Source: an uncultured Roseobacter sp.
Lineage (GTDB): Bacteria > Pseudomonadota > Alphaproteobacteria > Rhodobacterales > Rhodobacteraceae
Direction of reading: 5' to 3'
Length of the DNA stretch: 64,000 nt
Assembly (NCBI GenBank): GCA_947501635.1
Contig: CANMWT010000004.1
Location: forward strand, 310,001-374,000
The translations under genes and the position numbers were made by a program. Under the pieces are notes generated by a model, which was not told where the DNA came from, did no database searches, and worked only from the letters and a program-made list of their open reading frames with translations. Within the stretch, counting starts at the first letter, position 1. Each line of letters starts with the position of its first letter. Of this stretch, positions 46,831-60,800 are shown piece after piece.

Positions 46831-48330
46831 ATGAATCTGGCACATTGGCTCGCGCGACAGGCGCAATCAAACCCGCGTCGGCCGGCGCTCTTTTCCGGTC
46901 ATGACTGTGTGGCGGACTACGCGGCATTCTGGGCCGACGCGCGGGCCGTTGCCGGCTGGTTGGCAGCACAAGGGGTCCGCGCCGGTGACCGCGTGGCCAT
47001 CTACATGAAAAATGTGCCAGACTACCTCAGGGTGTTTTACGGCATCTGGATCGCCGGGGCGGCTGTTGTGCCGATCAATGCCAAGCTGCACGCACGCGAG
47101 GCTGCGTTCATACTTGCCGACAGTGGAGCGTCGCATGCCTTTGCCTCGCCCGAGCTTGCCGAGGCTTTGCCGCCTACCGGCGTGGAGGTGCCCGTCGTCT
47201 CGGTGCCCGGCACGGATTTCGAGAAACTCCGCAACCATGCGCCGCTGCCTCAGATCGTTGCGCGTCTGCCGCAGGATCTTGCGTGGTTATTTTATACATC
47301 CGGCACCACGGGCAAGCCTAAAGGGGTGATGATGACTCACCGGATGCTGATGTCCATGAGCTTGTGCTATGTGTCGGATATCGAGCCCGTGTCAGGCGAT
47401 GACACAACGCTTTACGCCGCGCCGATGAGCCACGGGGCCGGAATATACAACATGCTGCACGTAAGGGCAGGGGCGCGGCATGTGTGCCCGCCCTCAGGCG
47501 GGTTCGACCCTCACGAGATTTTTGACCTTGCCGCCTCTTTCGGGCGGATGCATCTTTTCGCCGCGCCTACAATGGTCAAACGGATGACAGAGGTCGCCCG
47601 CGCCGCGGGGCTGGACGGTGAGGGGCTGCGCACTGTCGTTTACGCGGGCGGACCCATGTACAACGCGGATATCATTGAGGCGGTGGATCATTTCGGCGCG
47701 GTCTTTGTACAGATTTACGGTCAGGGCGAATGCCCTATGGACATAACAGCTCTGTCGCGTGCCGACGTCGCTGACCGCAGCCATCCACAGTGGGCGAGCC
47801 GCTTGCAATCAGTGGGTCGCGCGCAGTCCGCGGTCGAGGTGGCGATTGGATCGCCCCGTGGTACGCCTTTGCCGGTTGGCGCGCATGGCGAGATCATGGT
47901 GCGCGGCGATACAGTTATGCCAGGCTATTGGCGCAACCCTGAGGCTACCACCAAAACCTTGGTCGATGGCTGGCTGATGACGGGTGACATGGGCTTTCTG
48001 GACAAGGACGGCTATCTGACCCTGCAGGACCGGTCCAAGGACATGATAATCACCGGCGGCTCTAACGTGTATCCGCGCGAGGTCGAAGAAGTGCTGCTGA
48101 CGGCACAGGGGGTGCGCGAGGTTTCGGTTGTTGGGCGGCCGCATCCCGAATGGGGCGAAGAGGTGGTTGCCTTTGTCGTCGGGCAATTCGACCCAGAGGA
48201 TCTTGATGCGCTGTGCCTTGAAAACATAGCCCGGTTCAAACGCCCCAAAACTTATATTGCGCTGGAGGAGCTGCCCAAGAACAACTACGGCAAGGTTCTC
48301 AAAACCGAACTTCGCGCACGCCTTTCCTGA
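46831..48330 (+). CDS. Acyl-CoA synthetase (AMP-binding, class I adenylate-forming)
   Basis: A 499-residue adenylate-forming enzyme. The phosphate loop is FYTSGTTGKPKGVM, followed by IYGQGECPMD as the adenine-binding A5 block, GWLMTGDMGFLDKDGYL (A7), DRSKDMIITGGSNVYP (A8) and the A10 lysine in PKNNYGKVLK. It activates a carboxylic acid as an acyl-AMP and transfers it to CoA. The acid is not evident from sequence; length and blocks fit a medium-chain or aryl acid ligase. It diverges from accB; the GntR-controlled operon begins 114 bases after it in the same direction, so the ligase might share the catabolic theme. Confidence 0.88.
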   Translation: MNLAHWLARQAQSNPRRPALFSGHDCVADYAAFWADARAVAGWLAAQGVRAGDRVAIYMKNVPDYLRVFYGIWIAGAAVVPINAKLHAREAAFILADSGASHAFASPELAEALPPTGVEVPVVSVPGTDFEKLRNHAPLPQIVARLPQDLAWLFYTSGTTGKPKGVMMTHRMLMSMSLCYVSDIEPVSGDDTTLYAAPMSHGAGIYNMLHVRAGARHVCPPSGGFDPHEIFDLAASFGRMHLFAAPTMVKRMTEVARAAGLDGEGLRTVVYAGGPMYNADIIEAVDHFGAVFVQIYGQGECPMDITALSRADVADRSHPQWASRLQSVGRAQSAVEVAIGSPRGTPLPVGAHGEIMVRGDTVMPGYWRNPEATTKTLVDGWLMTGDMGFLDKDGYLTLQDRSKDMIITGGSNVYPREVEEVLLTAQGVREVSVVGRPHPEWGEEVVAFVVGQFDPEDLDALCLENIARFKRPKTYIALEELPKNNYGKVLKTELRARLS

Positions 48331-48407: not shown

Positions 48408-48427
48408 TTGTATACACTTTGTATACA
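48408..48427. promoter_or_regulatory. Tandem TTGTATACA sites, probable GntR-family operator
   Basis: TTGTATACA occurs at 48408-48416 and again at 48419-48427, exactly 11 bases apart, so both faces of the sites line up along one side of the helix. Each carries the GTATAC palindrome that fits the GntR/FCD consensus (TNGTnnnnACNA type). They lie 18 bases before the start codon of the GntR regulator, so self-repression and control of the genes downstream is likely. Confidence 0.75.
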
Positions 48428-48444
48428 TTGCTTGGAGAGGGACT

Positions 48445-49149
48445 ATGCCGCGGGGATCAAAAGAAACATGCTACGCCGATATCAAGTTGCGGATACTGCG
48501 CACCGAACTTGAGCCGGGCGTTGTTCTGGATGAGGCATCGCTCGCCGCTAAATATGCACTGTCGCGGACCCCCCTGCGCGAAGTGCTCCAACGTCTTGCC
48601 GGGGAAGGGTATGTAGCGCTGGCCGAGCACCGTGGCGCAAAGGTTGCTTCGATGGATGTGGCTGTTCTGCGCAGTTTCTATCAGACCGCGCCGATGATCT
48701 ATGCGGCTATCAGCCGTCTGGCCGCGCAAAACCGCAAGGATGTGCAGCTGGTGGATTTGCAAAACGCGCAAGACGCTTTTGCAAATCACACGGCCGTCGG
48801 GGATGCTTCCGCCGCGGCATTGGCCAACTACAGGTTTCACGAAATCATCGGAGAGATGGCCCACAACGCCTATCTTCGTGCGTCGCTCAGCAGGTTGCTG
48901 ATCGATCACACGCGTCTCAGCCAGACATTCTACCGACCGAAGTCGCCGCAGGATGCCGCGCTGATCCGTCAGGCATCCGACCAGCACGAAGCCTTGATCG
49001 CAGCGATCAAAGCACAGGATGCCGATCGTGCGGCTGACCTTACACTGCAGCATTGGGCTTTGTCGCAAGACCGGATGGAGCAGTTCGTCCGACCTGACCC
49101 GCTGCCGTTTGACGTGCTGTCCCCAAAGGATGAAACCCATGCAGTTTGA
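48445..49149 (+). CDS. GntR-family (FCD) transcriptional regulator of the downstream catabolic operon
   Basis: A 234-residue regulator: a winged-helix domain at residues 10-70 (YADIKLRILRTELEPG, then LAAKYALSRTPLREVLQRLAGEGYVALAEHRGAKV) and an FCD-type all-helical effector domain with metal or acid ligand positions (YRFHEIIGEMAHN, later SDQHEALIAAIKAQDADRA). I chose ATG 48445 after GGAGAGG; an upstream in-frame ATG at 48361 would add 28 residues across the operator. Its last 11 bases overlap the DapA-family gene, so it belongs to the operon it probably controls. Confidence 0.9.
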   Translation: MPRGSKETCYADIKLRILRTELEPGVVLDEASLAAKYALSRTPLREVLQRLAGEGYVALAEHRGAKVASMDVAVLRSFYQTAPMIYAAISRLAAQNRKDVQLVDLQNAQDAFANHTAVGDASAAALANYRFHEIIGEMAHNAYLRASLSRLLIDHTRLSQTFYRPKSPQDAALIRQASDQHEALIAAIKAQDADRAADLTLQHWALSQDRMEQFVRPDPLPFDVLSPKDETHAV

Positions 49150-50047
49150 CGGAATTTATACGCCGATCGTAACACCCTACAACGCTGATTTCTCTATCAA
49201 TGAGAGCGTGTTATCAGACGTTATTGATTTTTTAATTGAGGCGGGGGTGAGCGGCCTGATCGTGGCGGGTACCACCGGGGAATACTATGCGCAGACCAGC
49301 GCGGAAAGGTACGATCTGATGCGCTTTGCCAAAGAGCGTATTGCCGGTCGCGTCCCTCTGATCGTAGGTACTGGCGCCATTCGAACGGAGGACAGCGTGG
49401 CTTACGCGGCTGCCGCGCGGGACATCGGAGCAACTGCAATCCTGGTCGCAACCCCGCCTTATGCCTACCCGACGGACCGCGAGATCGCCCTGCATTGCCT
49501 TGCCGTTGACCGCGCGGCGAACCTGCCGGCGATGCTTTACAATTATCCGGGCCGGATGAGCGTGAACATGGGTGAGGAATGCCTTGACCGGCTAGGCCGC
49601 AGCCCGAATTTCTGCGCCATCAAGGAAAGCTCCGGCGATCCTAACCGCTTGCACATGCTTGCGCGGGACTATCCCCACATCGCGCTAAGTTGTGGCATGG
49701 ACGATCAGGCGCTGGAGTTCTTTGCCTGGGGCGCGCGCTCTTGGGTATGTGCCGGTTCGAACTTTGCGCCCGAGGCGCACATCGCATTGCACCGGGCCTG
49801 TGTGGTTGAAGGCAACTTTACCAAGGGGCGCGCAATCATGTCTGCCATGTTGCCTTTGATGCGCGTGCTCGAACAGGGCGGCAAGTTCATTCAATGTATC
49901 AAACACGGGCTTTCGACAAGGGGTTTTGACGTGGGTCCGCCGCGCAAGCCTCTGCAGCCGCTCAATAAAGATGACAAACGACAACTCGAAGAAGTGATCC
50001 GCACCATGAATACGACGATCACCGATATCGAAGGAGCCTTCTCATGA
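49139..50047 (+). CDS. DapA/NAL-family pyruvate-type aldolase or dehydratase
   Basis: A 302-residue class I lyase of the dihydrodipicolinate synthase superfamily. Schiff-base Lys162 lies in CAIKESSGD, Tyr134 in MLYNYPGRMS, and the carboxylate-binding GTTGE at 44-48. Family members include DapA, N-acetylneuraminate lyase, HypD (pyrroline-4-hydroxy-2-carboxylate deaminase) and 2-keto-3-deoxy-sugar-acid dehydratases. The neighbouring aldehyde dehydrogenase, DAO-type oxidase and MttB gene favour a catabolic role such as forming 2-oxoglutarate semialdehyde; biosynthetic DapA is unlikely. I chose ATG 49139, which overlaps the GntR gene by 11 bases and follows AAAGGATG. Confidence 0.85.
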   Translation: MQFDGIYTPIVTPYNADFSINESVLSDVIDFLIEAGVSGLIVAGTTGEYYAQTSAERYDLMRFAKERIAGRVPLIVGTGAIRTEDSVAYAAAARDIGATAILVATPPYAYPTDREIALHCLAVDRAANLPAMLYNYPGRMSVNMGEECLDRLGRSPNFCAIKESSGDPNRLHMLARDYPHIALSCGMDDQALEFFAWGARSWVCAGSNFAPEAHIALHRACVVEGNFTKGRAIMSAMLPLMRVLEQGGKFIQCIKHGLSTRGFDVGPPRKPLQPLNKDDKRQLEEVIRTMNTTITDIEGAFS

Positions 50048-51516
50048 CCGACCTGTTGACCCTTGCCGAATATGAGGCAATCGCACGCGACATCGATCTT
50101 CCCGCGGCCCCCTTTGTCGACGGTAAATTCCGGCGCGGCGGCGGGCCGATGATGGACACGGTCAACCCCGCGACAGGTCAGGTGTTGACACAGCTGTCTA
50201 CGGCGGATCAGGGCGATGTTGATTTGGCGGTGGCCAAAGCGCGCGAGGCCTTCGAGCAGGGCCATTGGGCGCGGTTGCATCCGTCCGACCGCAAAGAAGT
50301 TTTGATCAGACTGTGCAAGTACATGACACGCCGCAAACGTGAACTGGCGGTCATGGAGAGCATCGATAGCGGCAAACCGATCCGCGATTGCGAGCTGATC
50401 GATGTCCCTGAAGCCATTCATTGCCTGAAGTGGCACGCAGAGGCGGTCGACAAGATTTACGATCAGGCAGGACCGGCCGGCGATGACGCCATTTCGCTTA
50501 TCGTGCGCGAACCGATTGGGGTTGTTGCCGCCGTTCTGCCTTGGAACTTCCCGCTCTTGATGCTGGCATGGAAGATCGGGCCCGCGTTGGCGGCGGGCTG
50601 TTCGGTGATTGTCAAACCGGCCGAGCAGACATCGCTGACCGCACTGCGGGTGGCCGAACTTGCACATATGGCCGGTGTGCCGCGTGGCGTCTTGCAGGTC
50701 CTGCCGGGGGACGGGGCGGCCGTGGGCGAGCCTCTGGGGCGGCACATGGATGTCGATATGGTCAGTTTCACGGGTTCGACCGAAACGGGGCGACGCTTTT
50801 TGCACTATGCCGCCGACAGCAACCTCAAGAAAGTCGTGTTGGAATGCGGTGGCAAGAATCCCGCGCTTGTGCTTGAAGATGCGGAAAACCTAGATCATGT
50901 GGCCGAGCATGTTGTGAACGCCGCTTTTTGGAATGGCGGCCAGAACTGTTCGGCCGCATCGCGGTTGATTGTCCACAAAGCCGTAAAAGAGCTGTTGATG
51001 GCGCGGATCGAGGCACGCATGCGTGACTGGAAGACCGGTAACCCGCTGGATCCGGCCCACCACATCGGAACGATGATTGACGAGGACCATGCCGCAAAGG
51101 TGCGCGGCTACCTGCAAAGTGATGAGACAGGCCCCTACATCGTGCCCACAATTCTTTACGTCGGCGCGGATGATCCGGCCGCCCGCGAAGAGATTTTTGG
51201 CCCTGTCCTGTCGGTGATCGAGGTTTCCAGCACAGATCAGGCCATTGCTGTTGCAAATGACACGGCCTATGGCCTCGCGGCCAGCGTGTTCACCGCCAAT
51301 ACCCGACAGGCATTGCGCGCGGCCCGCGATATCCGCGCAGGCACCGTAACGGTGAACTGCTACGGCGAGGGCGACATGTCCACGCCATTCGGCGGATACA
51401 AACAGTCCGGTTTTGGCGGACGGGACAATGGCCTGCATGCCCATGACCAATACACCGAGATCAAGACCATATGGGTCGACCTGAGCGATCCAGCTGAAGG
51501 AGACAACATCGGATGA
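50044..51516 (+). CDS. NAD(P)-dependent aldehyde dehydrogenase with a shortened loop
   Basis: A 490-residue ALDH. The active-site residues are Asn168 (LPWNFP), Glu267 (LECGGKNP) and Cys302 (GGQNCSAAS), at standard numbering; GSTETGR (245-251) is the cofactor loop, and EEIFGPVLSV follows. Between the conserved helix ending AAKVRGYLQS (about 351-360) and YIVPTI (365-370) there are only a few residues where related enzymes have about fifteen to twenty more, usually including a GGxxxG turn. The deletion is in frame. The ATG overlaps the DapA-family stop by 4 bases. Substrate inferred: a semialdehyde or amino aldehyde, with 2-oxoglutarate semialdehyde one candidate. Confidence 0.88.
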   Translation: MTDLLTLAEYEAIARDIDLPAAPFVDGKFRRGGGPMMDTVNPATGQVLTQLSTADQGDVDLAVAKAREAFEQGHWARLHPSDRKEVLIRLCKYMTRRKRELAVMESIDSGKPIRDCELIDVPEAIHCLKWHAEAVDKIYDQAGPAGDDAISLIVREPIGVVAAVLPWNFPLLMLAWKIGPALAAGCSVIVKPAEQTSLTALRVAELAHMAGVPRGVLQVLPGDGAAVGEPLGRHMDVDMVSFTGSTETGRRFLHYAADSNLKKVVLECGGKNPALVLEDAENLDHVAEHVVNAAFWNGGQNCSAASRLIVHKAVKELLMARIEARMRDWKTGNPLDPAHHIGTMIDEDHAAKVRGYLQSDETGPYIVPTILYVGADDPAAREEIFGPVLSVIEVSSTDQAIAVANDTAYGLAASVFTANTRQALRAARDIRAGTVTVNCYGEGDMSTPFGGYKQSGFGGRDNGLHAHDQYTEIKTIWVDLSDPAEGDNIG

Positions 51517-52274
51517 GTAGCATCGGCTTCATTGGTACAGGGCACATCGCGGCGCCGATGGTCCGGTTTCTGTCACAACACGGTCATCAGCTGACCGTCT
51601 CCGCTCGAAACGCGGAAACTGCCGCTGAACTGGCCGCATCGCATGGTGTCACGGTTGCAGAAAATCAGGCGGTTCTGGATGCGAGCGATATCGTGTTTCT
51701 TTGCGTGAGGCCGCATCTCGCGGCTGAGGTACTCGCACCTTTGCGCTTTCGCCGCGACCACCGGATTGTTTCGGTGATGGCGGGTGTGCCGCTGGACAGT
51801 CTGGCGCGTGCCTGCGCGCCTGCGACGGACATTACGCTGACTATTCCGCTGGGCTATCTCGAACAGGGCGGCTGCCCGTTGCCAGCCTGTCCGAAGGCAG
51901 ATGTTCTGGAGGCACTTTTTGCCCCGGAAAACCCGGTTCTCGAAGTGGCGGATGAAGCGGCATTCAATATGCATTTCGCCGTTTGTGCCTTTGTGCCTGG
52001 TGTTTTGGACCTTATGGCAACGGCCGCGGACTGGCTGGCAGATCACACCAAAGATCCCGATCAGGCCGCGCGATACACCCGGCAACTTCTGGCGGGGTTT
52101 CTCGCGGCTTTGCCGGATGAAGGGGCCGCAGTGTTGCCTACGGAACGTGACGCGCTGGCCACCGCTGGCACTTTGAGCCTGCAGATGACTGATGGGCTGC
52201 GGGCCGGGGCGGTGCATGACGCGCTGACAGCCACATTGACCGGCATCGGGGATAGATTGAAGGGGACGACATGA
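51513..52274 (+). CDS. NAD(P)-binding pyrroline-5-carboxylate reductase-like protein
   Basis: A 253-residue protein with a Rossmann N-terminal domain (SIGFIGTGHIAAPMVRFL, then ADIVFLCVRPHLA-like DIVFLCVRPHL and VSVMAGVPLDSL) and a helical C-terminal domain. It resembles ProC in its N half, but the C-terminal catalytic block of ProC (a GTGxAG-SGPAY stretch) is not evident, so it may reduce or oxidise a different imino acid. It overlaps both neighbours by 4 bases (ATGA type), so it is coupled with the aldehyde dehydrogenase and the MttB gene. An imino acid substrate is inferred. Confidence 0.75.
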   Translation: MSSIGFIGTGHIAAPMVRFLSQHGHQLTVSARNAETAAELAASHGVTVAENQAVLDASDIVFLCVRPHLAAEVLAPLRFRRDHRIVSVMAGVPLDSLARACAPATDITLTIPLGYLEQGGCPLPACPKADVLEALFAPENPVLEVADEAAFNMHFAVCAFVPGVLDLMATAADWLADHTKDPDQAARYTRQLLAGFLAALPDEGAAVLPTERDALATAGTLSLQMTDGLRAGAVHDALTATLTGIGDRLKGTT

Positions 52275-53821
52275 GTGTTGATGCAGTCGGAACGGTCAGG
52301 CGGGGGCGCGGCGCCCGGCGTGCCATTCGGCAGACCACCGATGTGACGATGCTGCCGGCTTTGCGCCGTGGTTTGCCGCTCACCGAGCCGATGTCAGAAG
52401 ACCAGATCGCCCGCATCGATGCGGCGTCCATGGATATACTGGAAAACGTGGGCGTTGTCTTTCGCGACCCGGTGGCTTTGCAGGACTGGAAGGATGCGGG
52501 CGCAGATGTGCGTGGTGAGAGAGTACATCTTGACCGGGCGCTGGTCCGGTCTCTGATTGCGACGATCCCCGAAACATTTACCTATTACGCGCGCGATCCC
52601 GCGAAAAACCTGCCTTTCGGGCGCGACTACGCTATTTTCGTACCAATGACCGGCGCGCCGTACCTGCGTGATCTGGAGGACAAGCGCCGCAATCCGACGC
52701 TCGAGGATCTGGCGAACTTTCATAAGCTCAGCCACATGCTTCCGGCGATGCATTCCTCGGCACATCACATTGTGGAGCCTTACGACCATCCGATCAGCCA
52801 GCGCCATCTGCGCATTACCTATTCGTCGATGAAACACTCCGACAAGACGTTCATGGGCATGACGACCAGCCCTAAAAACGCCGAAGACGTGCTGGACATG
52901 TGTGCCATTCTTTTTGGAGAGGCGTTTTTGGAAGACCATCCCGTTGTCACGGGAAACTGTAACGGCAACTCGCCCCTGGTCTGGGATGAAACAATGCTCG
53001 GGGCATTGCGGGCGTTCAGCCGAAGGAACCAGCCGGTACTGTGCTCGCCTTTTGTATTGGGCGGGGCCAATACGCCTGCTTCTGTCGCCCCCACCGTGGT
53101 ACAACTGAATGCAGAGGCGCTGAGCGCGCTGGCCTATACTCAAGTGATCCGCGCGGGCGCGCCAGCCATCTACGGGCACTATCTGTCGACCGTGTCGATG
53201 AAGTCGGGTGCCCCCATGGCCGGCACGCCGGAAATCAGTCTGATGAACTTCATGATCGGGCAGATGGCACGGCACTACGGCATTCCATGGCGCACCTCGA
53301 CAACACTGGGCGGGGCCAAAACCTTTGATGCGCAAGCGGGATATGAAAGTGCGATGACGCTGAACGCCGTGCTGATGAGTGGGGCCAACTACATGTGGCA
53401 TGCAGCAGGCTGGAACGAGGCCGGCATGCATTGCTCGACCGCCAAATTCATTGTCGACGCGGAGGTATGCGCGATGGGATACCGCATGGCCGAAGGTGTC
53501 CGCTGGGATGACTTTGATGCGGCCCTGCAAGCTGTTGGGGATGTGGGGCCGGGGGGACATTACCTTGGCCACCCCCACACGCTGGAAAACTTTCAGAGGG
53601 CCTTTTTCATGCCGGAGATGTTCGACAACAACTCGATCGAGCAGTGGCAGGCAGAGGGGTCGGTTGCGGTCACCGAACGCGCGCTGGCGCGCGCGCGCAG
53701 CCTGCTTGGCGACTATGAAGAACCCAAGCTCGACCCGGGGATTGACGAGGCGCTGCGCGACTACATCGACCGCCGCGAGCGTGAAATCCCGCCTGCCGAT
53801 GCACTCAATCAGGAGTATTAA
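52271..53821 (+). CDS. Trimethylamine methyltransferase family protein (MttB-like, non-pyrrolysine)
   Basis: A 516-residue MttB-superfamily protein. The blocks ALRRGLPL, MTSPKNAEDVLDMCAILFG, PVVTGNCNGNSPLVWDE, GGANTPASVAPTVVQLNAEALSA and AGWNEAGMHCSTAKFIVDAE follow the family. There is no in-frame TAG, so pyrrolysine is absent; members without it include MtgB (glycine betaine) and demethylases for proline betaine, carnitine and related amines, which pass a methyl group to a corrinoid protein. No corrinoid protein or RamA-type activator gene is in this operon, so the methyl acceptor is open. It sits between the ProC-like and DAO genes. Confidence 0.9.
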   Translation: MSVDAVGTVRRGRGARRAIRQTTDVTMLPALRRGLPLTEPMSEDQIARIDAASMDILENVGVVFRDPVALQDWKDAGADVRGERVHLDRALVRSLIATIPETFTYYARDPAKNLPFGRDYAIFVPMTGAPYLRDLEDKRRNPTLEDLANFHKLSHMLPAMHSSAHHIVEPYDHPISQRHLRITYSSMKHSDKTFMGMTTSPKNAEDVLDMCAILFGEAFLEDHPVVTGNCNGNSPLVWDETMLGALRAFSRRNQPVLCSPFVLGGANTPASVAPTVVQLNAEALSALAYTQVIRAGAPAIYGHYLSTVSMKSGAPMAGTPEISLMNFMIGQMARHYGIPWRTSTTLGGAKTFDAQAGYESAMTLNAVLMSGANYMWHAAGWNEAGMHCSTAKFIVDAEVCAMGYRMAEGVRWDDFDAALQAVGDVGPGGHYLGHPHTLENFQRAFFMPEMFDNNSIEQWQAEGSVAVTERALARARSLLGDYEEPKLDPGIDEALRDYIDRREREIPPADALNQEY

Positions 53822-53823
53822 TC

Positions 53824-54075
53824 ATGGAGGGTTCAACCCTTGCGACCGCGGCGCAAGGTGGTGGAGAAATGAAAGCGATCGTTGAACCTGCGGCTGAACA
53901 GTCCCGTGGGCCAAAGTCTTGGACAATCTGTGTGGATGCGGCCGCCGACACAGCTGGCGTCGTTATTTTTCGTCTCTGCGCGCTTGGGGCTGAAACCTGC
54001 TTCCCACATCCGCAGGCTGCTGCAGGTCTCGCGCGGCAGGACACCATCGCACGCCTGCCGGAGCACGGCCGGTGA
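53824..54075 (+). CDS. Small unknown protein between the MttB and oxidase genes
   Basis: An 83-residue protein starting at ATG 53824, two bases after the MttB stop codon, with AGGAG at 53812-53816. Its TGA at 54073-54075 overlaps the GTG start of the oxidase gene by three bases, the arrangement used for coupled translation. No family is recognised; the middle (SWTICVDAAADTAGVVIFRLCALG) could be a beta-alpha element. Two Cys and a CFPHP motif might bind metal. It could instead be a leader that opens the oxidase start. Confidence 0.5.
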   Translation: MEGSTLATAAQGGGEMKAIVEPAAEQSRGPKSWTICVDAAADTAGVVIFRLCALGAETCFPHPQAAAGLARQDTIARLPEHGR

Positions 54076-55406
54076 AGGTTGCGCGTCTGCCTCGTGATCC
54101 CGGACCTGCCGGGTGGGATAGGCTATTGGCTGTGCCTGATCCCGCCACGCCCCTGGAAGAGAATACAACCGCTGACTGGTTGGTGATCGGGGCAGGGTAT
54201 GCGGGGCTCGCGGCCGCGCGCAGGTTGGCGCAACTCTGTCCCGCGGACCGCATTGTCATTCTTGACGCAACGCGGGTCGGATCGGGGCCAGCAGGGCGCA
54301 ATTCGGGTTTCATGATCGACCTGCCACATGATCTTGCCTCGGAGAACTACGGTGGCAAGCTCGACGCGGATCGCGCTCAGATCGAGGACAATAGACGCGC
54401 TATCGAGTTTGCCCAAGATATGGCAGATAACTTTAGCTTACCGTCGGAAGCTTTTGTAAAATCAGGAAAAATAAACGCAGCTGCCACGGCGAAAGGCTCG
54501 GCTCACAACCAGTCATTCGCGCGACATCTCACAGCCTTGGGTGAGCGGCATGAAATGCTTGATGCACACGACATGCAAGAGCTGACCGGAATCAACTACT
54601 ACGAGGGGGGGCTGTTTACGCCCGGGGCGGTAATGATCCAGCCGGCGCTCTTTGTGCGTTGCGTGGCGCAGGCTCTGCGCTCCAACCGTGTGCGCCTGCA
54701 CGAAAACAGCCCCGTGACGGCCTTGGTGCGGCAGGGGGCGGACTGGGTGGCCAGCACCCCGCGGGCGCAGGTGACAGCACCAAATGTGATATTGGCGGTC
54801 AATGGGCATCTTGAAAGCTTCGGGTATTTGTCCGGCCGACTGATGCATGTATTCACCTATGCCTCCATGACCCGTGCGCTCTCGGCTGAGGAAACTGCGG
54901 CACTGGGAGGCACCCCGCGCTGGGGCATCACCCCAGCAGACCCTTTGGGCACGACGGTGCGGCGCATCTCGGGGACAGGCGGGGACCGGATCGTGATCCG
55001 CAACCGCTTTACCTATGATCCTGCGATGGAAGTGAGCGATGCGCGCATTGCACAGGTCGCCCGCGATCATGACAAAGCATTTGCCGCACGGTTTCCAATG
55101 CTGCGGGGCGTCGGCATGGACTTCCGATGGGGCGGACGGCTTTGTCTGAGCTACAACAATGTGCAGGTCATTGGAGAGCTTGAGCCGGGGCTTTGGTCCG
55201 CTTGCTGCCAGAACGGTTTGGGCACGGCCAAAGGCACGCTGGCGGGGCTGTTGGTTGCGGAGGCGGCAAATGGCATCGGGTCCCCCGCACTTGACCGCGC
55301 GATGCAGGCTCCCAAGCCCCAAAAGCTTCCACCCGCGCCATTGGCACGGGTGGGAGCATTTGCGCGCTTGCGCTTTGGTGAATTCCGCGCGGGGCGCGAG
55401 CTGTAA
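54072..55406 (+). CDS. FAD-dependent DAO-family oxidoreductase (amino acid or polyamine oxidase type)
   Basis: A 444-residue flavoenzyme. The dinucleotide site WLVIGAGYAGLAAARRLAQL lies near residues 35-55, followed by GSGPAGRNSGFMIDLPHD and, near the C terminus, DFRWGGRLCLSYNN and WSACCQNGLGTAKGTLAG, the pattern of DadA/OrdL/PuuB oxidases. In the operon it may oxidise an N-methylated or cyclic amino acid to an imine, before the ProC-like and DapA-family steps. The start is GTG 54072, overlapping the small gene. The CCQNG stretch where many homologues have a GHG-type motif is noteworthy. It ends 4 bases from the livF end. Confidence 0.85.
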   Translation: MKVARLPRDPGPAGWDRLLAVPDPATPLEENTTADWLVIGAGYAGLAAARRLAQLCPADRIVILDATRVGSGPAGRNSGFMIDLPHDLASENYGGKLDADRAQIEDNRRAIEFAQDMADNFSLPSEAFVKSGKINAAATAKGSAHNQSFARHLTALGERHEMLDAHDMQELTGINYYEGGLFTPGAVMIQPALFVRCVAQALRSNRVRLHENSPVTALVRQGADWVASTPRAQVTAPNVILAVNGHLESFGYLSGRLMHVFTYASMTRALSAEETAALGGTPRWGITPADPLGTTVRRISGTGGDRIVIRNRFTYDPAMEVSDARIAQVARDHDKAFAARFPMLRGVGMDFRWGGRLCLSYNNVQVIGELEPGLWSACCQNGLGTAKGTLAGLLVAEAANGIGSPALDRAMQAPKPQKLPPAPLARVGAFARLRFGEFRAGREL

Positions 55407-55410
55407 GCAG

Positions 55411-56166
55411 TCAGATCGCGAGGTATTCTTCGCGCAACTCTTTGTTTTCAAGAACTTCTGCAGCGCTTCCGTCAAAAACGATACCGCCTGTGTCAAGGAT
55501 CACGGCACGGTCTGCAAGTTCAAGCGCACGGACCGCATTCTGTTCCACGAGGATCGTGGTCATACCCTGCTCTTTGATGATGCGGAGCGTTTTTTCGATC
55601 TCGTCCACGATTACCGGGGCAAGACCTTCGTATGGCTCGTCCAGCAACAACACTTTCAGATCGCGACACAGTGCCCGCGCGATGGCCAGCATCTGTTGCT
55701 CGCCACCGGACAGGGTGACCCCTTCCTGATTGCGCCGCTCGCGCAGGCGGGGGAAAAGGTCGTAGACCCGGTCGATAGACCAGCCAATCGGTGGTGCGAT
55801 CTGCGCAAGCTTCAGGTTTTCCTCGACCGTGAGGCCCGCAATGATCCGGCGGTCTTCGGGAACCAGCCCCAGACCGACCGTAGCGGCCTCATAGCTTGTC
55901 ATCTTGTGCAGCGGCTGGTGGTCCAACCAGATCTCACCATGGCGTACTTCCGGATCGCCAATGCGGGCGATAGAGCGCAGGGTTGAAGTTTTGCCGGCAC
56001 CATTGCGGCCCAGTAGGGCAAGGATTTCTCCCTCATGGACGTTAAAGCTGATGCCCTGCACGATATAGCTTTCGCCGTAGTAGGCGTGCATGTCCCAGAC
56101 CGACAGAAAAGCGGGCGCGGTCGACGCCATATTGGCGTTTTTGCTGAAATCGGGTTTGACGTTCAT
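55411..56166 (-). CDS. livF: Branched-chain amino acid type ABC transporter ATPase (LivF type)
   Basis: A 251-residue ATPase: Walker A GRNGAGKTS, signature LSGGEQQMLAIARAL, Walker B LLLDEPYEGLAP, switch LVEQNAVRALELAD. The NAxxGxxLxxx-type pattern and length of LivF fit, as does the partner LivG encoded 12 bases upstream. I chose ATG 56166 (MNVKPDF) after AAGGAG; an in-frame ATG twelve codons on is the other option. The cargo is not fixed by the family, which carries amino acids, urea, amides and short acids. Confidence 0.92.
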   Translation of the reverse strand: MNVKPDFSKNANMASTAPAFLSVWDMHAYYGESYIVQGISFNVHEGEILALLGRNGAGKTSTLRSIARIGDPEVRHGEIWLDHQPLHKMTSYEAATVGLGLVPEDRRIIAGLTVEENLKLAQIAPPIGWSIDRVYDLFPRLRERRNQEGVTLSGGEQQMLAIARALCRDLKVLLLDEPYEGLAPVIVDEIEKTLRIIKEQGMTTILVEQNAVRALELADRAVILDTGGIVFDGSAAEVLENKELREEYLAI

Positions 56167-56178
56167 ACCGGTATCTCC

Positions 56179-56943
56179 TTACGCCGCAGTCTGCGTTTCG
56201 CCCAGATAGGCTTCGCGCACTTTGGGGTGGCCCTTGATGTTGTCGGGGGTGTCTTCGACGAGAGGTGTCCCCTGCGCCAACACGGTGATGCGCTGGGACA
56301 GGCTGAAAACCACATGCATGTCATGTTCGATGATGGCGATTGTGATGTCGCGCTCCTCGCTGATCTGTTTAAGCAGGTCGATCGTGTTGTTGGTATCGGC
56401 CCGCGCCATACCGGCGGTCGGCTCGTCCAGAAGAAGCAGGCGCGGCTCTTGACTGAGGCACATGCCAATCTCAAGACGGCGCTTGTCGCCCCGTGACATG
56501 GAACTGGACGTCATGTGGCGCTTGTCTGCCATATTCATCTCTTCCAGCATATGTTCCGCGCGTTCGACCACGTCTTTCTGTGACAACACGTTAGAGATCG
56601 CGTTCAGCTCAAAGGCCCCGTCGCGCTTGGCAAAGCAGGGGATCATCATGTTTTCCAGCACCGAAAGGTCGCCAAAGATTTCCGGTGTCTGAAAGACGCG
56701 GCTGATGCCCATCTGGTTGATCTCGTGCGGTTTTCGCCCCAGAACCGACTGCCCGTCGAACATGACAGATCCGGTGTCGGGGATCAGCTTGCCCACAAGG
56801 CAGTTCAGCAAGGTGGACTTGCCAGCACCGTTTGGGCCGATGATGGCGTGCACGGAACGTTCGGCGATACTGAGGTTTACATCGCTCAGAGCCTGCAGGC
56901 CGCCAAAGCGCTTGCCGACGTTTTTGACTTCAAGAATTCCCAT
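56179..56943 (-). CDS. livG: Branched-chain amino acid type ABC transporter ATPase (LivG type)
   Basis: A 254-residue ATPase: Walker A GPNGAGKST, Walker B LLLDEPTAGMA, then IIEHDMHVVFSLSQRITVL, the LivG hallmark. The ABC signature reads MSRGDKRRLEIG instead of the usual LSxGQ-type sequence, with Arg and Asp-Lys in place of Gly and Gln, so ATP-site contacts may differ. Chain length is normal. It lies between livM (12 bases upstream) and livF. Confidence 0.92.
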   Translation of the reverse strand: MGILEVKNVGKRFGGLQALSDVNLSIAERSVHAIIGPNGAGKSTLLNCLVGKLIPDTGSVMFDGQSVLGRKPHEINQMGISRVFQTPEIFGDLSVLENMMIPCFAKRDGAFELNAISNVLSQKDVVERAEHMLEEMNMADKRHMTSSSMSRGDKRRLEIGMCLSQEPRLLLLDEPTAGMARADTNNTIDLLKQISEERDITIAIIEHDMHVVFSLSQRITVLAQGTPLVEDTPDNIKGHPKVREAYLGETQTAA

Positions 56944-56955
56944 AACGTCGTCTCC

Positions 56956-58200
56956 TTATTCGGCGGGGGTTGTTTTGCCGTCAGCTTTTTCGTCTGCAGC
57001 TTTTTTGCCGCGGAACATGCCGGCGATTTTCTGGCCACCCTGAACAAGACCACCCGGCAGGAAGATCACGACAAGCATGAAGATGATCCCCAGTGTCAGA
57101 TGCCATCCCTTGCCGATGAACGGGTAGATGATGGCTACGACAAAGTCTTCGAGCCCGTCGGGCAGGAAAGCAAACCATGTGTGCAGGATGTCAGAGTTGA
57201 TCTTGGACAGGATGTTTTCCATGTATTTGATCGCACCGGCCCCAAGAACCGGGCCGATCAGCGTGCCGACACCGCCAAGGATGGTCATCAAAACGACCTC
57301 GCCCGAAGCCGTCCAGAACATGCGTTCAGGCCCTGCCAGCGGATCCATGGAAGCCATCAGCCCGCCTGCCAGACCGGCATACATGCCGGAAATGACGAAA
57401 GCGGCCAGCATGTAGGGCTTGGGGTTCATGCCCGTATAGTTCAGCCTTTGCTGGTTGGACTTGATCGACTTGAGCACCAACCCGAATGGCGATCGGAATA
57501 TCCGGATCGACAGGTAGAAAGACAGCAGCATCACGAAGGCAGCGAAGTAGTAACCCGCCGAGAAGGTAAAGACCCAGTCTCCCACATTGAGTTCCGCGGC
57601 ACTGCGCATCTCAAGGCCGAAAAGGCTGGGCACGGGGATATTGCCCTCTGCCGTTGTTTGTTGCCCCAGGATACGCGGGTCCTGCAGTGTCAGCTGCAGA
57701 CCGGTTTCGCCACCCGTCAGCCCCTTTTGCAGCAGGCCCTGCTTGTCGGGGCCGTCCATATCCGTGGCCAGAACCGAGTAGGCGAGCGAGTAGGACATCA
57801 TCGCAAAGGCGAGCGTCAGGATTGAAAAGTAGATGCCAGAGCGTCGCAGGCTGATATAGCCAATAAAGACGGCAAAGATACCGGACATGATGACTGAAAG
57901 CGCAAGCGCTGGCAGTACGTTCATGCCAAGCACTTTGAACATCCACATGGCGGCGTAGGATCCAATCCCAAGAAAGGCCGCATGCCCGAAAGAGAGGTAG
58001 CCGGTCAGGCCGAAGAGGATATTGAACCCGATCGCGAAGATACCAAAGATCACAAAGCGCTGCATGAGGTCCGGATAACCGGCGTTGAACTGCGCCATTG
58101 CCGAACCTTCGGGGAAGGGGTTGAGGATGAATGGCGCTGCCATTGTCAGGATGACAACCAGCAAAAGTAGTCTGGTGTCCTGTTTGTTAAGTCCGAGCAT
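56956..58200 (-). CDS. livM: Branched-chain amino acid type ABC transporter permease (LivM type)
   Basis: A 414-residue permease with about ten membrane segments, longer than usual LivM (about 320-360 residues outside a few long members). The extra length lies in a hydrophilic loop of about 60 residues (from [11 protein letters not shown] to ELNVGDWVF) that should face the periplasm, and a charged C-terminal tail. The core [39 protein letters not shown] and [14 protein letters not shown] blocks are typical. It begins 4 bases after livH. Confidence 0.93.
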
Positions 58201-58204
58201 ATTC

Positions 58205-59236
58205 TTAGTCCTCCATCACGCCCTTGCGGCCCATCAGGCCCCGCGGACGGGTCAGCAAGATGATAATTGCGACCAGGTAAATGATGATCTGGTTGATACC
58301 GGGAAGCGTGTCGAGCACGACCGGCATGGATGCAAAGCTTTCCAGAACACCAAGCAGAAAGCCTGCCGCGACAGCTCCGGGCAACGACCCCATGCCGCCG
58401 ACAACGACAACAACAAAGCTAAGCACCAGAAAGTCCATCCCCATGTGGTAGTTGGGCGAGTTAATGGGCGTATACATCACCCCAGCTAGTCCTGCGACTG
58501 CCGCGGCTATGCCGAACATGATCGTAAAGCGCTTGTCGATATTGATGCCCAGAAGGCCCACTGTCTCGCGGTCTGCCATACCCGCGCGGACAACCATACC
58601 AAAGGTGGTGAACTGCAAGAAGGCAAAGACTGCACCGATGATAAGGGCCGCAAAGCCAAAGTAGACCAGACGCCAGTAGGGATAAATGATAGAGCCGGGA
58701 TCAAACCCAAGAAGTGCTCCGAAGTCGAAAGAGCCGGTAAAGGCTGACGGTGCGGGCGTGGGGATCGGGTTGGCGCCGTAGAAATATTTGATGACTTCCT
58801 GCAAAACGATGGCAAGGCCAAAAGTTACAAGGATCTGGTCGGCATGCGGGCGCTTGTAAAAGTGCTTGATAAGCCCTCGCTCCATCGCAAAACCGATCCC
58901 GATCATCACCGGGATCGCGAATAGGATTGACAGCGGTACGGCCCAGTCGATCACGGCGGCGCCGGTGGCTTCGCCCAGAATATCATAGATGTAGGGCACA
59001 TCGCGCATCATCGGGTTGCCAAGGAAGTCAACCTCGCCGGGTACTGCGACCTCATGGCTGACGCTGAGCAAGCGGCTGAATGTGACAGCGCAGAAAGCGC
59101 CGATCATGAACAGCGCACCATGCGCGAAGTTCACGACACCCAATGTGCCGAAGATCAGCGTCAAACCCAGCGCGATCAGCGCATAAGCCGAGCCTTTGTC
59201 CAGGCCATTCAGGATTTGAAGGATGATTGCGTCCAT
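58205..59236 (-). CDS. livH: Branched-chain amino acid type ABC transporter permease (LivH type)
   Basis: A 343-residue permease with about eight membrane segments. The N-terminal block [38 protein letters not shown] is the LivH hallmark; [28 protein letters not shown] and [27 protein letters not shown] are also typical. About 45 residues (from SRLLSVSHE to IDWAVPL) after the second membrane helix exceed the usual loop. It follows the binding-protein gene after 87 bases that hold a strong hairpin. Confidence 0.93.
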
Positions 59237-59281
59237 GGTCCCACCTTCATGAAACGAAGTTGCCCCTGAAACGGGGAGAAC

Positions 59282-59304
59282 CGGGCGGCGAGAAGCGCCG
59301 CCCG
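59282..59304 (-). terminator. Stem-loop between binding-protein gene and livH
   Basis: CGGGCGGCG (59282-59290) pairs perfectly with CGCCGCCCG (59296-59304) around the five-base loop AGAAG. It lies 20 bases past the end of the binding-protein gene and has no U-run on the transcribed strand, so it more likely protects or partly stops the message than ends it. It matches in position and role the hairpin at 28648-28678. Confidence 0.65.
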
Positions 59305-59323
59305 ATGTGTTGGATAAGTGGCG

Positions 59324-60664
59324 TTACGCGCCCGGGTTGCACGCACCCAGTTCGCCACCGAAAATGGAGGCGTCGTAGGTCACTTGCTCTACCGGCGTGA
59401 TTTCCACGATCTCGAGAAGGTCGAACTCGGATGTGGGGTTCTCTTTCCCTTTCACAACCAGCACGTCCTTGAAGCACTGGTGGTCTTCGCCGCGATAAAG
59501 CGTTGGGCCGTTGCCCATGCCATCGAAAGAGAAGTCCTTGAGTGCTTCGCCAACCGCACATGGGTTGAACGAGCCTGCACGCTGTACCGCATCCGCATAA
59601 AGCAGCGCCTGCACGTAGCATGTGTGCGCGGCCTGCGACGGCGGGAAGCCGTATTTGGTGCCGAAGGATTTAACAAAGGCTTTGGAGCCTTCATCCTGCA
59701 GCGACCAGTGCCAGTTGGTGGAGCCGAAGATGCCTTTAACGTTTTCACCGGCACCTTTCGCCATCAGGCGGGAGTAGAGCGGAACAACGATTTCGAAGTT
59801 CTTGCCGTTGGCGACGCGCTCACGCAGGCCGAACTGAACCGCGTTGGTCAGCGAGTTCACCATGTTGCCGCCATAGTGGTTGAGAACCAGTACGTCCGCG
59901 TCGGACTGCAGCACTGGCGCGATGTAGGACGAGAAGTCCGTTTGCGTCAGCGGTGTCAGAACCGTGCCGACGGTTTCCCAACCCATGGCCTCTGTGGACG
60001 TACGCACCGCTTCTTCGGTGGTGTAGCCCCAGTTGTAGTCGGCTGTCAGGTGGTAGGCCTTGCGGTCCGTGCCGTAGTTGTTTGCAAGCACAGGCGCGAG
60101 CGCCGCGCCGGTCATGTAGGAGTTGAAGAAGTGACGGAAGCCGTTCGCTTTCTTGTCCTTACCGGTCGTATCGTTGGAGTGGGTCAGACCCGCCATGAAG
60201 ATCACGCCGGCCTCTTGACACAGTGCCTGTACGGCAACAGCCACACCGGAGGACGAGCCACCCGTGATCATGATGGCGCCGTCTTTTTCGATCATCGAAC
60301 GAGCAGAAGCGCGCGCCGCGTCTGATTTCGTCTGCGTGTCGCCTGTCACATACTCGACCTTCTTGCCGAGGATGCCTGTGCCGTCCAGCGCCTTGGATGA
60401 GAACGTGTTCAGCAGACCGCCGTCACCGCCACCGTTCAGATGCTCGACTGCAAGCTCATAGGCGCGCAGTTCGTCCGCACCTTCGTCCGCGTAAGGGCCG
60501 GACTGCGGTACGTTGAAACCCAGTGTCACAGTGCTGCCTGTTGGCGCGTTGGTAAAGCCCGAGTGGCCATCCGCACGCAGATACGTCGGCAGCGTCAGAC
60601 CGGCAGCACCGGCGACGGCGCCAGTCTTGATAAGACCACGACGTGTTAAGTTCGATTTGGACAT
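59324..60664 (-). CDS. Branched-chain amino acid type ABC transporter substrate-binding protein, TAT exported
   Basis: A 446-residue type I binding protein. Residues 1-32 carry a twin-arginine signal (NLTRRGLIKTGAVAG, ending LRADG), so it folds in the cytoplasm before export. The Peripla_BP_6 core has TVTLGFNVPQSGPYADEG, the DTQTKSDAARASARSMI helix, ITGGSSSGVAVAVQ, and ADYNWGYTTEEAV. I chose ATG 60664, opening MSKSN, after GGGAGG; a longer open frame begins at 60796 but has no such site. It is expressed first in the operon and diverges from the XRE regulator. The ligand is unknown; a short-chain acid or amino acid derivative is a guess based on the regulator type. Confidence 0.9.
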   Translation of the reverse strand: MSKSNLTRRGLIKTGAVAGAAGLTLPTYLRADGHSGFTNAPTGSTVTLGFNVPQSGPYADEGADELRAYELAVEHLNGGGDGGLLNTFSSKALDGTGILGKKVEYVTGDTQTKSDAARASARSMIEKDGAIMITGGSSSGVAVAVQALCQEAGVIFMAGLTHSNDTTGKDKKANGFRHFFNSYMTGAALAPVLANNYGTDRKAYHLTADYNWGYTTEEAVRTSTEAMGWETVGTVLTPLTQTDFSSYIAPVLQSDADVLVLNHYGGNMVNSLTNAVQFGLRERVANGKNFEIVVPLYSRLMAKGAGENVKGIFGSTNWHWSLQDEGSKAFVKSFGTKYGFPPSQAAHTCYVQALLYADAVQRAGSFNPCAVGEALKDFSFDGMGNGPTLYRGEDHQCFKDVLVVKGKENPTSEFDLLEIVEITPVEQVTYDASIFGGELGACNPGA

Positions 60665-60800
60665 GAAAATCCTCCCATATGATTGATCAAACGTGGCTCT
60701 TACATCTCCCTCGAGCACACGTATGAAGCACTTAAGTGCAACCCCCAGACTGCATATCAAGAGAAAATTGCGCAACAACCCCCTTGAATTTAACAATTAT

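What the first reader, a model, noticed from the sequence alone, without database searches (positions are those of the whole stretch)
48408..55406. GntR-controlled operon that looks like an unassigned pathway for a methylated amino acid or betaine
Seven genes in one direction, most overlapping by 4 bases: GntR, DapA-family lyase, aldehyde dehydrogenase, ProC-like reductase, MttB-family methyltransferase, a small unknown and a DAO-type oxidase. Known from the families: MttB-like enzymes without pyrrolysine take methyl groups from betaines; DAO enzymes oxidise amino acids to imines; DapA-family lyases such as HypD open a cyclic imino acid to 2-oxoglutarate semialdehyde; an ALDH oxidises that to 2-oxoglutarate. 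Inferred chain: demethylation of a betaine of the proline or hydroxyproline type, oxidation to an imine, ring opening, semialdehyde oxidation. What does not fit a known operon: no corrinoid protein and no RamA-like activator in the cluster, and a ProC-like protein of unclear role.
Basis: partly seen in the sequence, partly recalled or inferred. Interest (0 to 1): 0.82.

Follow-up and report, generated by a model that had tools for sequence, protein, structure and literature searches.

The report
B12-dependent hydroxyproline-betaine breakdown operon (predicted)
A conserved gene set of marine bacteria very probably lets them eat hydroxyproline betaine, a salt-stress compound, by removing a methyl group with a vitamin-B12 enzyme and turning the rest into a central metabolite; no experiment has yet shown it.

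Summary
The operon is real: six intact genes (GntR, DapA-family, ALDH, ProC-like, MttB, DAO). The seventh, the 'small unknown', is most likely a decayed acetyltransferase gene. In 54 of 58 related loci with room on both sides, DapA, ALDH, MttB and DAO lie together. Relatives point to the substrate: MttB lies beside the hydroxyproline-betaine epimerase HpbD in Cereibacter sphaeroides and HpbD adjoins 7 of 80 loci. The same GntR-DapA-ALDH-DAO cassette, without MttB, lies with a 4-hydroxyproline epimerase and a betaine/proline transporter in Rhizobium and Agrobacterium. The corrinoid protein and activase are encoded elsewhere in the genome, as in published MttB systems. Best reading: catabolism of 4-hydroxyproline betaine. 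MttB removes one methyl, DAO oxidises the ring, the DapA-type lyase opens it, ALDH makes 2-oxoglutarate. This genome shows no proline racemase/HypF, no HpbA and no close HpbD or Rieske HpbC, so the second methyl may leave as methylamine; that is inference. An operator-like TGTATACA stands before most GntR copies examined. The substrate is unproven.

The parts
48409..48427 (.). operator-like double palindrome TGTATACA-CTT-TGTATACA, 17 nt before the GntR ATG
   Evidence: 0.01 matches expected by chance in the window at up to 3 mismatches; the only copy in the 4.2 Mb genome with fewer than 2 mismatches; TGTATACA upstream of GntR in 53 of 77 regions against 0.5% of mononucleotide-shuffled regions (four regions are in twice; absent in the closest relative L011)
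48445..49149 (+). GntR/FCD-family regulator, predicted substrate-responsive repressor
   Evidence: PF00392 and PF07729 over cut-off; ATG read
49139..50047 (+). DapA-family lyase, predicted Delta1-pyrroline-4-hydroxy-2-carboxylate (or its N-methyl form) dehydratase/deaminase
   Evidence: PF00701; equivalents of E. coli DapA Lys161, Tyr133, Thr45 and Tyr107 kept (window and E. coli rows); apart from E. coli and own biosynthetic DapA, NanA and YagE
50044..51516 (+). aldehyde dehydrogenase, predicted 2-oxoglutarate semialdehyde dehydrogenase
   Evidence: PF00171; 63% to the ALDH of the R. etli cassette; none of the 25 NCBIfam models shown reaches its cut-off
51513..52274 (+). ProC-like reductase, optional accessory
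   Evidence: F420_oxidored domain; present in 13 of 80 loci; 35% to the ProC-like gene of a Paraburkholderia betaine/DapA/DAO/ALDH cluster
52271..53821 (+). non-pyrrolysine MttB-family methyltransferase, predicted hydroxyproline-betaine:corrinoid methyltransferase
   Evidence: PF06253, 707 bits; 73-89% identical to the 22 clade members compared, 47% to 4yyc and 39% to glycine betaine methyltransferase 9yce
53824..54075 (+). probable remnant of a GNAT acetyltransferase gene
   Evidence: collinear alignment to the GNAT C-terminus of L016, L011, L044; full-length gene at this place in those three
54072..55406 (+). DAO-type flavin oxidase, predicted to oxidise (N-methyl-)hydroxyproline to the cyclic imine/iminium
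   Evidence: PF01266; 52% to the DAO of the R. etli cassette; no PDB match by sequence at E<=1e-5; predicted fold of glycine/sarcosine oxidase, DMGDH and L-proline dehydrogenase type, 13-19% identity

Best explanation
A GntR-controlled catabolic operon for 4-hydroxyproline betaine (N,N-dimethyl-4-hydroxyproline). MttB moves one N-methyl group to a shared corrinoid protein (MtgC-like, encoded elsewhere and kept reduced by a RACo/RamA-type activase), which passes it to tetrahydrofolate. The DAO-type flavoenzyme oxidises the resulting N-methyl-hydroxyproline (or hydroxyproline) to the cyclic imine. The DapA-family lyase opens and dehydrates it through a lysine Schiff base to 2-oxoglutarate semialdehyde, and the ALDH oxidises this to 2-oxoglutarate. 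Shown: genes, order, conservation, and the context that links them to HpbD, HypF and betaine transporters. Inferred: the substrate, each reaction, the stereochemistry and the fate of the second methyl.
For: In C. sphaeroides 2.4.1 the MttB gene is followed by an HpbD homologue, two SDRs, DAO-ALDH-DapA-GntR and a ProV/W/X-type betaine transporter. That HpbD is 78% identical to an annotated 4-hydroxyproline betaine 2-epimerase of Paracoccus pantotrophus and gives 671 bits to the sequence of 4e8g/4izg/4j1o, an enolase of P. denitrificans. Of the 30 plasmid records listed for MttB (197 matched), 20 also stand among the 40 listed for HpbD (66 matched), 18 of them with a gap of at most 1.2 kb (my comparison; 7 of the 20 are C. 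sphaeroides). HpbD adjoins the operon in 7 of 80 loci, and L068 also carries an HpbA homologue, 46%. In R. etli and A. tumefaciens the same GntR-DapA-ALDH-DAO cassette (DapA 62%) lacks MttB in the stretch but lies with a glycine betaine/L-proline ABC transporter and 4-hydroxyproline epimerase (R. etli epimerase 581 bits over cut-off 376). BCCT-type genes adjoin DAO in L120, L077 and G017. The MttB orthologue (80% or more) and the DapA (E<=1e-60) occur in exactly the same 9 of 59 genomes. MtgC-like and RACo genes are elsewhere in the genome, matching shared corrinoid cores in print (PMC8604678, passages; PMC12478193, passages). Proline betaine was found in all four marine holobiont/alga samples tabulated and hydroxyproline betaine in the two holobionts (PMC11965087, passages).
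Against: The window operon itself has no HpbD, and close betaine transporters adjoin only 3 of 80 loci. 4 of 58 well-covered loci lack part of the core, and in Leisingera caerulea (L121) an MttB of this clade stands without the cassette in 25 kb. Fragments of an MttB 63-68% identical to ours lie in G005 and G028, which lack the DapA. No NCBIfam cut-off is reached by DapA, DAO or MttB, nor by the ALDH among the 25 models shown, nor by the MtgC-like and RACo proteins. HpbD itself scores 261 bits to NCBIfam cis-3-hydroxyproline dehydratase, below its cut-off 500. The SDRs, P450 and GNAT of relatives have no assigned step. The genome has two HpbD-related enolases (35-39%) near a Rieske oxygenase and a DMGDH-like flavoprotein at another locus, which could act in trans or do the job instead. 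A corrinoid:THF methyltransferase (MtgD) was not searched for.
Confidence: 0.6

Rival explanations
1. The main substrate is proline betaine (stachydrine): MttB makes N-methylproline, and the DAO/DapA/ALDH part serves a hydroxylated branch (e.g. after P450 hydroxylation) or hydroxyproline from other sources.
For: The HpbD family includes a proline betaine racemase (PMC5144071, passage); E. limosum MtpB, an MttB homologue, demethylates proline betaine (PMC8604678, passages); a P450 lies in the operon of 6 of 80 loci; stachydrine shortens the lag phase of P. inhibens (PMC11306105, passage).
Against: Proline betaine would give proline and needs no DapA-type ring opening, yet ALDH and DapA are the commonest partners of MttB (76 and 73 of 80); the P450 is rare and absent from the window operon.
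Confidence: 0.2
2. Another N-methylated hydroxy-cyclic amino acid (3-hydroxyproline betaine, N-methyl-hydroxyproline, a pipecolate relative) is the substrate, with the same logic.
For: The DAO's best NCBIfam match is L-pipecolate oxidase AmaA, far below cut-off; one HpbD-related enolase of the own genome scores best with cis-3-hydroxyproline dehydratase, below cut-off.
Against: The annotated partners in relatives are 4-hydroxyproline enzymes.
Confidence: 0.12
3. The cassette GntR-DapA-ALDH-DAO degrades unmethylated hydroxyproline, and MttB is a passenger acting on glycine betaine or carnitine.
For: DapA, ALDH and DAO genes lie together with no MttB annotated in the fetched stretches of Rhizobium, Agrobacterium, Klebsiella and Paraburkholderia.
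Against: Three of those four lie with betaine transporter genes; the MttB orthologue and DapA co-occur in the same 9 of 59 genomes; the own genome has another MttB, L001, 61% identical to 4yyc, a likelier glycine betaine enzyme (inference); no proline racemase family member (HypF) is found in the own genome.
Confidence: 0.08

Closest known systems
Hydroxyproline betaine/proline betaine pathway of Paracoccus and Pelagibaca (HpbD, Rieske HpbB/C, HpbA, HypF, HypO, HypC, HypD; recalled from Zhao 2013 and Kumar 2014, neither paper held)
   Same: DAO-type oxidase, DapA-family protein and ALDH; HpbD and betaine transport in relatives
   Different: O2-dependent Rieske demethylation appears replaced by a B12-dependent MttB; the window genome shows no match to HpbA, Rieske HpbC or HypF at the thresholds used and no HpbD orthologue
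E. limosum MtpB/MtcB/MtyB with MtqC, MtqA, RamQ (PMC8604678, passages)
   Same: non-pyrrolysine MttB enzymes, each for one quaternary amine, sharing a corrinoid core encoded elsewhere
   Different: anaerobic acetogen; here Rhodobacteraceae-type bacteria, and the demethylated amino acid appears to be degraded by operon enzymes. MtpB's sequence was not at hand for comparison
MtgBCD(E) of Ruegeria pomeroyi (PMC12478193, passages)
   Same: MttB-family enzymes with an MtgC core in marine Roseobacters; here too an MtgC-like gene next to a homocysteine methyltransferase gene
   Different: glycine betaine; the window MttB is 47% to 4yyc, and its clade differs from the L001/4yyc-type group in 62 columns fixed in each of two 23-row groups
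[quoted passage not shown] enzyme families recalled)
   Same: oxidation to cyclic imine, DapA-family deamination, ALDH
   Different: methylated substrate; no HypF in the window genome

Membership tests
non-pyrrolysine MttB superfamily | PF06253 over cut-off and no in-frame amber codon | tested here: met
   706.9 bits against 25; no TAG
non-pyrrolysine MttB superfamily | methyl transfer from a quaternary amine to a corrinoid protein | not testable with these tools
   needs assay; a candidate corrinoid protein exists in trans
MtgB glycine betaine methyltransferase | closest to crystallised MtgB-type enzymes among the genome's paralogues | tested here: not met
   39% to 9yce and 47% to 4yyc, while own paralogue L001 is 44% and 61%; 62 group-fixed differences
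biosynthetic DapA / N-acetylneuraminate lyase | grouping with E. coli DapA, NanA or the genome's own DapA | tested here: not met
   24-26% identity; own C1 DapA joins E. coli DapA (100/99) and the window protein does not; the deepest forks are unresolved
[quoted passage not shown]
   PF00701; Lys161 and Tyr133 equivalents
[quoted passage not shown]
   no characterised sequence was at hand for comparison; context only
Hpb hydroxyproline betaine pathway | HpbD epimerase present | tested here: not met
   best own-genome match 38-39%; present in 7 of 80 related loci and in C. sphaeroides
Hpb hydroxyproline betaine pathway | Rieske HpbC and HpbA demethylases, HypF | tested here: not met
   own genome: none at E<=1e-30, none at E<=1e-100 with 20 of 27 candidates scored, no PF05544 at E<=0.001; another Rieske protein exists at C9. 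Some other operon-bearing genomes do have HpbA or PF05544 (see the Full report section)

The most novel reading that the evidence does not exclude
A one-demethylation shortcut: MttB removes a single methyl, the DAO oxidises N-methyl-hydroxyproline directly in its natural configuration, and the DapA-type lyase accepts the N-methyl iminium and expels methylamine instead of ammonia. Neither an epimerase nor an oxygen-dependent demethylase would be needed, and one osmolyte would yield methyl-THF, methylamine and 2-oxoglutarate. A 2-mismatch operator copy 33 nt before fhs hints that folate C1 oxidation is co-regulated.
Probability: 0.25. Interest if true: 0.78.

Novelty: new variant of a known kind. 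Interest (0 to 1): 0.62.

Why it matters
PMC12478193 (passages) reports up to seven MttB-family genes in marine bacterial genomes and suggests diverse methylated substrates for them. This assigns one widespread clade a specific, testable substrate, links vitamin B12 to the turnover of proline-type betaines in marine Rhodobacteraceae and relatives, and offers marker genes (mttB-dapA-DAO) for a betaine found in marine holobionts. It also suggests that an oxygen-dependent step of a known pathway has a cobalamin-dependent replacement.

Tried and rejected
Small ORF as a functional gene: rejected as most likely a GNAT relic. Neighbouring acyl-CoA synthetase (46831-48330) and LivFGMH with its binding protein (55411-60796) as parts of the system: among the 80 loci only L011, the record of a close relative (G018), keeps them close by at high identity, so they are treated as neighbours. 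Missing corrinoid gene as an anomaly: rejected. ALDH as a named semialdehyde dehydrogenase type: inconclusive. DAO fold comparison: closest to glycine/sarcosine oxidase, DMGDH, L-proline and D-arginine dehydrogenases, so it does not fix the substrate. The HpbD model had mean pLDDT 65; its Foldseek hits are used only for names and sequence identity. The ProC of P. pantotrophus does not align over its length with the window ProC.

Errors and limits: the first DapA tree contained a wrong row for the own biosynthetic DapA (another ORF was taken); one search replaces it. The crude gene picker lost some genes to reverse-strand ORFs, so counts rest on tblastn with identity and coverage thresholds I set. 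The MttB comparison used 17 of the 80 loci plus five plasmid loci; one search left out own paralogues L002, L004, L005, L006 and 9yce from its second group. In one search the records of G018, G016, G014 and G002 stand twice, and three regions are cassettes without MttB. Co-occurrence is not corrected for kinship. Literature: 10 searches; Zhao 2013 and Kumar 2014 are not held, and Kumar 2014, recalled to treat R. sphaeroides, may mention this locus. Papers: passages only of PMC12478193, PMC8604678, PMC5144071, PMC11965087, PMC11306105; others from search listings.
Full report
Anatomy. The six intact genes run on the + strand: GntR 48445-49149, DapA-family 49139-50047, ALDH 50044-51516, ProC-like 51513-52274, MttB 52271-53821, DAO 54072-55406. 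Three junctions overlap by 4 bases and one by 11. The small ORF 53824-54075 is most likely a decayed GNAT gene: relatives L011, L016 and L044 carry a 209-214 aa GNAT gene at that spot, and the small ORF aligns collinearly to its C-terminal part, with 0, 0 and 2 of 1000 shuffles reaching the scores against L016, L011 and L044.

Conservation. By tblastn with my thresholds, ALDH is present in 76 of 80, DapA 73, DAO 69, GntR 65, both SDRs 32, ProC-like 13, HpbD 7, P450 6, GNAT 4; many contigs are short. Of 71 loci with room upstream, 61 have GntR, DapA and ALDH; of 61 with room downstream, 57 have DAO; of 58 with room on both sides, 54 have DapA, ALDH, MttB and DAO. Counter-examples: L032, L038 and L073 lack DapA and ALDH, L071 lacks a detected DAO, L055 has GntR directly before MttB and no DapA or ALDH in its 12.8 kb, and a Leisingera caerulea plasmid has an MttB of this clade without the cassette in 25 kb. 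Among 59 genomes (own included), the orthologous MttB (80% or more) and the DapA (E<=1e-60) occur in exactly the same 9; Fisher P 1.4e-8 within the 35 genomes of the family, without correction for kinship. Not counted: fragments of a 63-68% identical MttB in G005 and G028.

Substrate context. Cereibacter sphaeroides 2.4.1 plasmid pB: MttB, HpbD homologue, SDR, SDR, then DAO-ALDH-DapA-GntR on the other strand, then ProV/W/X-type genes and a GlxA regulator. The HpbD homologue is 78% identical to the protein annotated as 4-hydroxyproline betaine 2-epimerase in P. pantotrophus and best matches the sequence of 4e8g/4izg/4j1o. The operon HpbD of L044 is 71% identical to that P. pantotrophus protein and to 4izg of P. 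denitrificans. That these structures are the HpbD of the EFI studies is recalled. In NCBIfam, which showed no HpbD model among its hits, both score best with cis-3-hydroxyproline dehydratase, below cut-off. P. pantotrophus has HpbD with Rieske and HpbA genes and no MttB in the stretch. R. etli p42f and an Agrobacterium plasmid have the GntR-DapA-ALDH-DAO cassette with glycine betaine/L-proline ABC genes and 4-hydroxyproline epimerase; the R. etli stretch also has an HpbA homologue (73%) and annotated Rieske-type and reductase genes. Paraburkholderia has ProV, a choline permease, a betaine-binding protein, SHMT, DapA, DAO, ALDH and ProC-like genes. A Mesorhizobium plasmid has DapA, ALDH, DAO, MttB and HpbD without GntR. 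A Yoonia plasmid and L077 have a BCCT gene right after DAO, and G017 has BCCT and then HpbD after DAO. Close transporters of these types adjoin only 3 of the 80 loci (L024, L069, L077).

Corrinoid machinery. The window genome encodes a 232-aa B12-binding protein at C9 (PF02310 and PF02607; best NCBIfam MtgC model 196 bits, below its cut-off 370) beside a homocysteine S-methyltransferase gene, and one RACo-type activase at C22 (its NCBIfam matches AcsV and RamA are below cut-off). A second, weak PF02607 match lies at C10. Shared corrinoid partners encoded elsewhere are established for E. limosum MtpB, MtcB and MtyB (PMC8604678) and suggested for the MttB homologues of R. pomeroyi (PMC12478193). 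A corrinoid:THF methyltransferase (MtgD) was not searched for. The genome has six MttB-family genes. One, L001, is 61% identical to 4yyc and is the likelier glycine betaine enzyme (inference); the operon MttB is 47%. 62 alignment columns are fixed differently (95% or more in each) between 23 operon-clade rows and 23 rows of the L001/4yyc type.

DapA. The genome has two DHDPS-family genes. The other one groups with E. coli DapA (46% identity, 100/99 support), while the operon protein falls with the cassette proteins of Cereibacter, Phaeobacter, Rhizobium, Agrobacterium and Klebsiella (16 rows, 89/93, short of the starred level). Several reference branches are long, so the deep order is uncertain. 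Equivalents of the Schiff-base lysine and catalytic tyrosine are kept.

What is missing. The window genome (listed 100% complete) has no PF05544 proline racemase family match, no HpbA match at E<=1e-100 (20 of 27 candidates scored), no match to the P. pantotrophus Rieske protein at E<=1e-30 and no HpbD orthologue. It does have, at C9, two HpbD-related enolases (35-39%), a DMGDH-like flavoprotein and another Rieske protein, so trans-acting substitutes cannot be excluded. The absence is not general: of the 9 operon-bearing genomes, HpbA-like proteins occur in 4 (G018 and G025 at 69-70%, G002 and G016 at 45%), PF05544 over cut-off in 2 (G007, G025) and an HpbD of 68% in 1 (G017). If nothing substitutes in the window genome, the DAO must oxidise an L-configured, possibly N-methylated, hydroxyproline, and the second methyl would leave as methylamine. 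This is inference.

Regulation. TGTATACA-CTT-TGTATACA at 48409-48427 is 17 nt before the GntR ATG; chance expectation in the window is 0.01. TGTATACA is present upstream of GntR in 53 of 77 regions, the window included, against 0.5% of mononucleotide shuffles; 8 regions have two perfect copies; the closest relative L011 has none. In the genome it is the only copy with fewer than 2 mismatches. The one 2-mismatch copy lies 33 nt upstream of the formate-THF ligase gene, with folD further downstream. One site in one genome is a lead, not evidence.

Verdict. New variant of a known kind: a betaine pathway in which a corrinoid methyltransferase appears to stand in for the oxygenase. The context evidence is strong for a (hydroxy)proline-type betaine, and the ring-opening enzymes favour the hydroxylated one. 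I found no paper assigning this clade in ten library searches, but two key papers on the Hpb pathway are not held.

Noticed in passing
G000:C8:67788-67806 (L202 1501-1519; L203): 2-mismatch copy of the GntR operator 33 nt before fhs (formate-THF ligase), folD further downstream: possible co-regulation of folate C1 oxidation.
   Followed up: partly
G000:C9 (L169 9617-16308): Locus with HpbD-related enolase genes, a DMGDH-like DAO/GCV_T protein and a Rieske oxygenase: a possible second betaine demethylation locus.
   Followed up: partly
L133 (Klebsiella pneumoniae IncR plasmid): DapA-ALDH-GntR-DAO genes, DapA 58% identical to the window's, with IS26 and other transposase genes near: a metabolic cassette on a plasmid.
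   Followed up: no
L035, L044, L047, L050, L068, L083: A cytochrome P450 gene at the operon; it may hydroxylate proline betaine or remove the second methyl.
   Followed up: partly
32 of 80 loci, e.g. L018 11554-13013: Two different tandem SDRs, mostly between MttB and DAO; a tandem SDR pair also lies in an S. meliloti DapA/DAO/ALDH/proline racemase cluster (L136). Could epimerise the 4-hydroxyl; role unknown.
   Followed up: no
window 55411-60796: Convergent Liv-type ABC transporter (LivFGMH plus Peripla_BP_6 protein); at high identity near the operon only in L011 among the 80 loci.
   Followed up: partly
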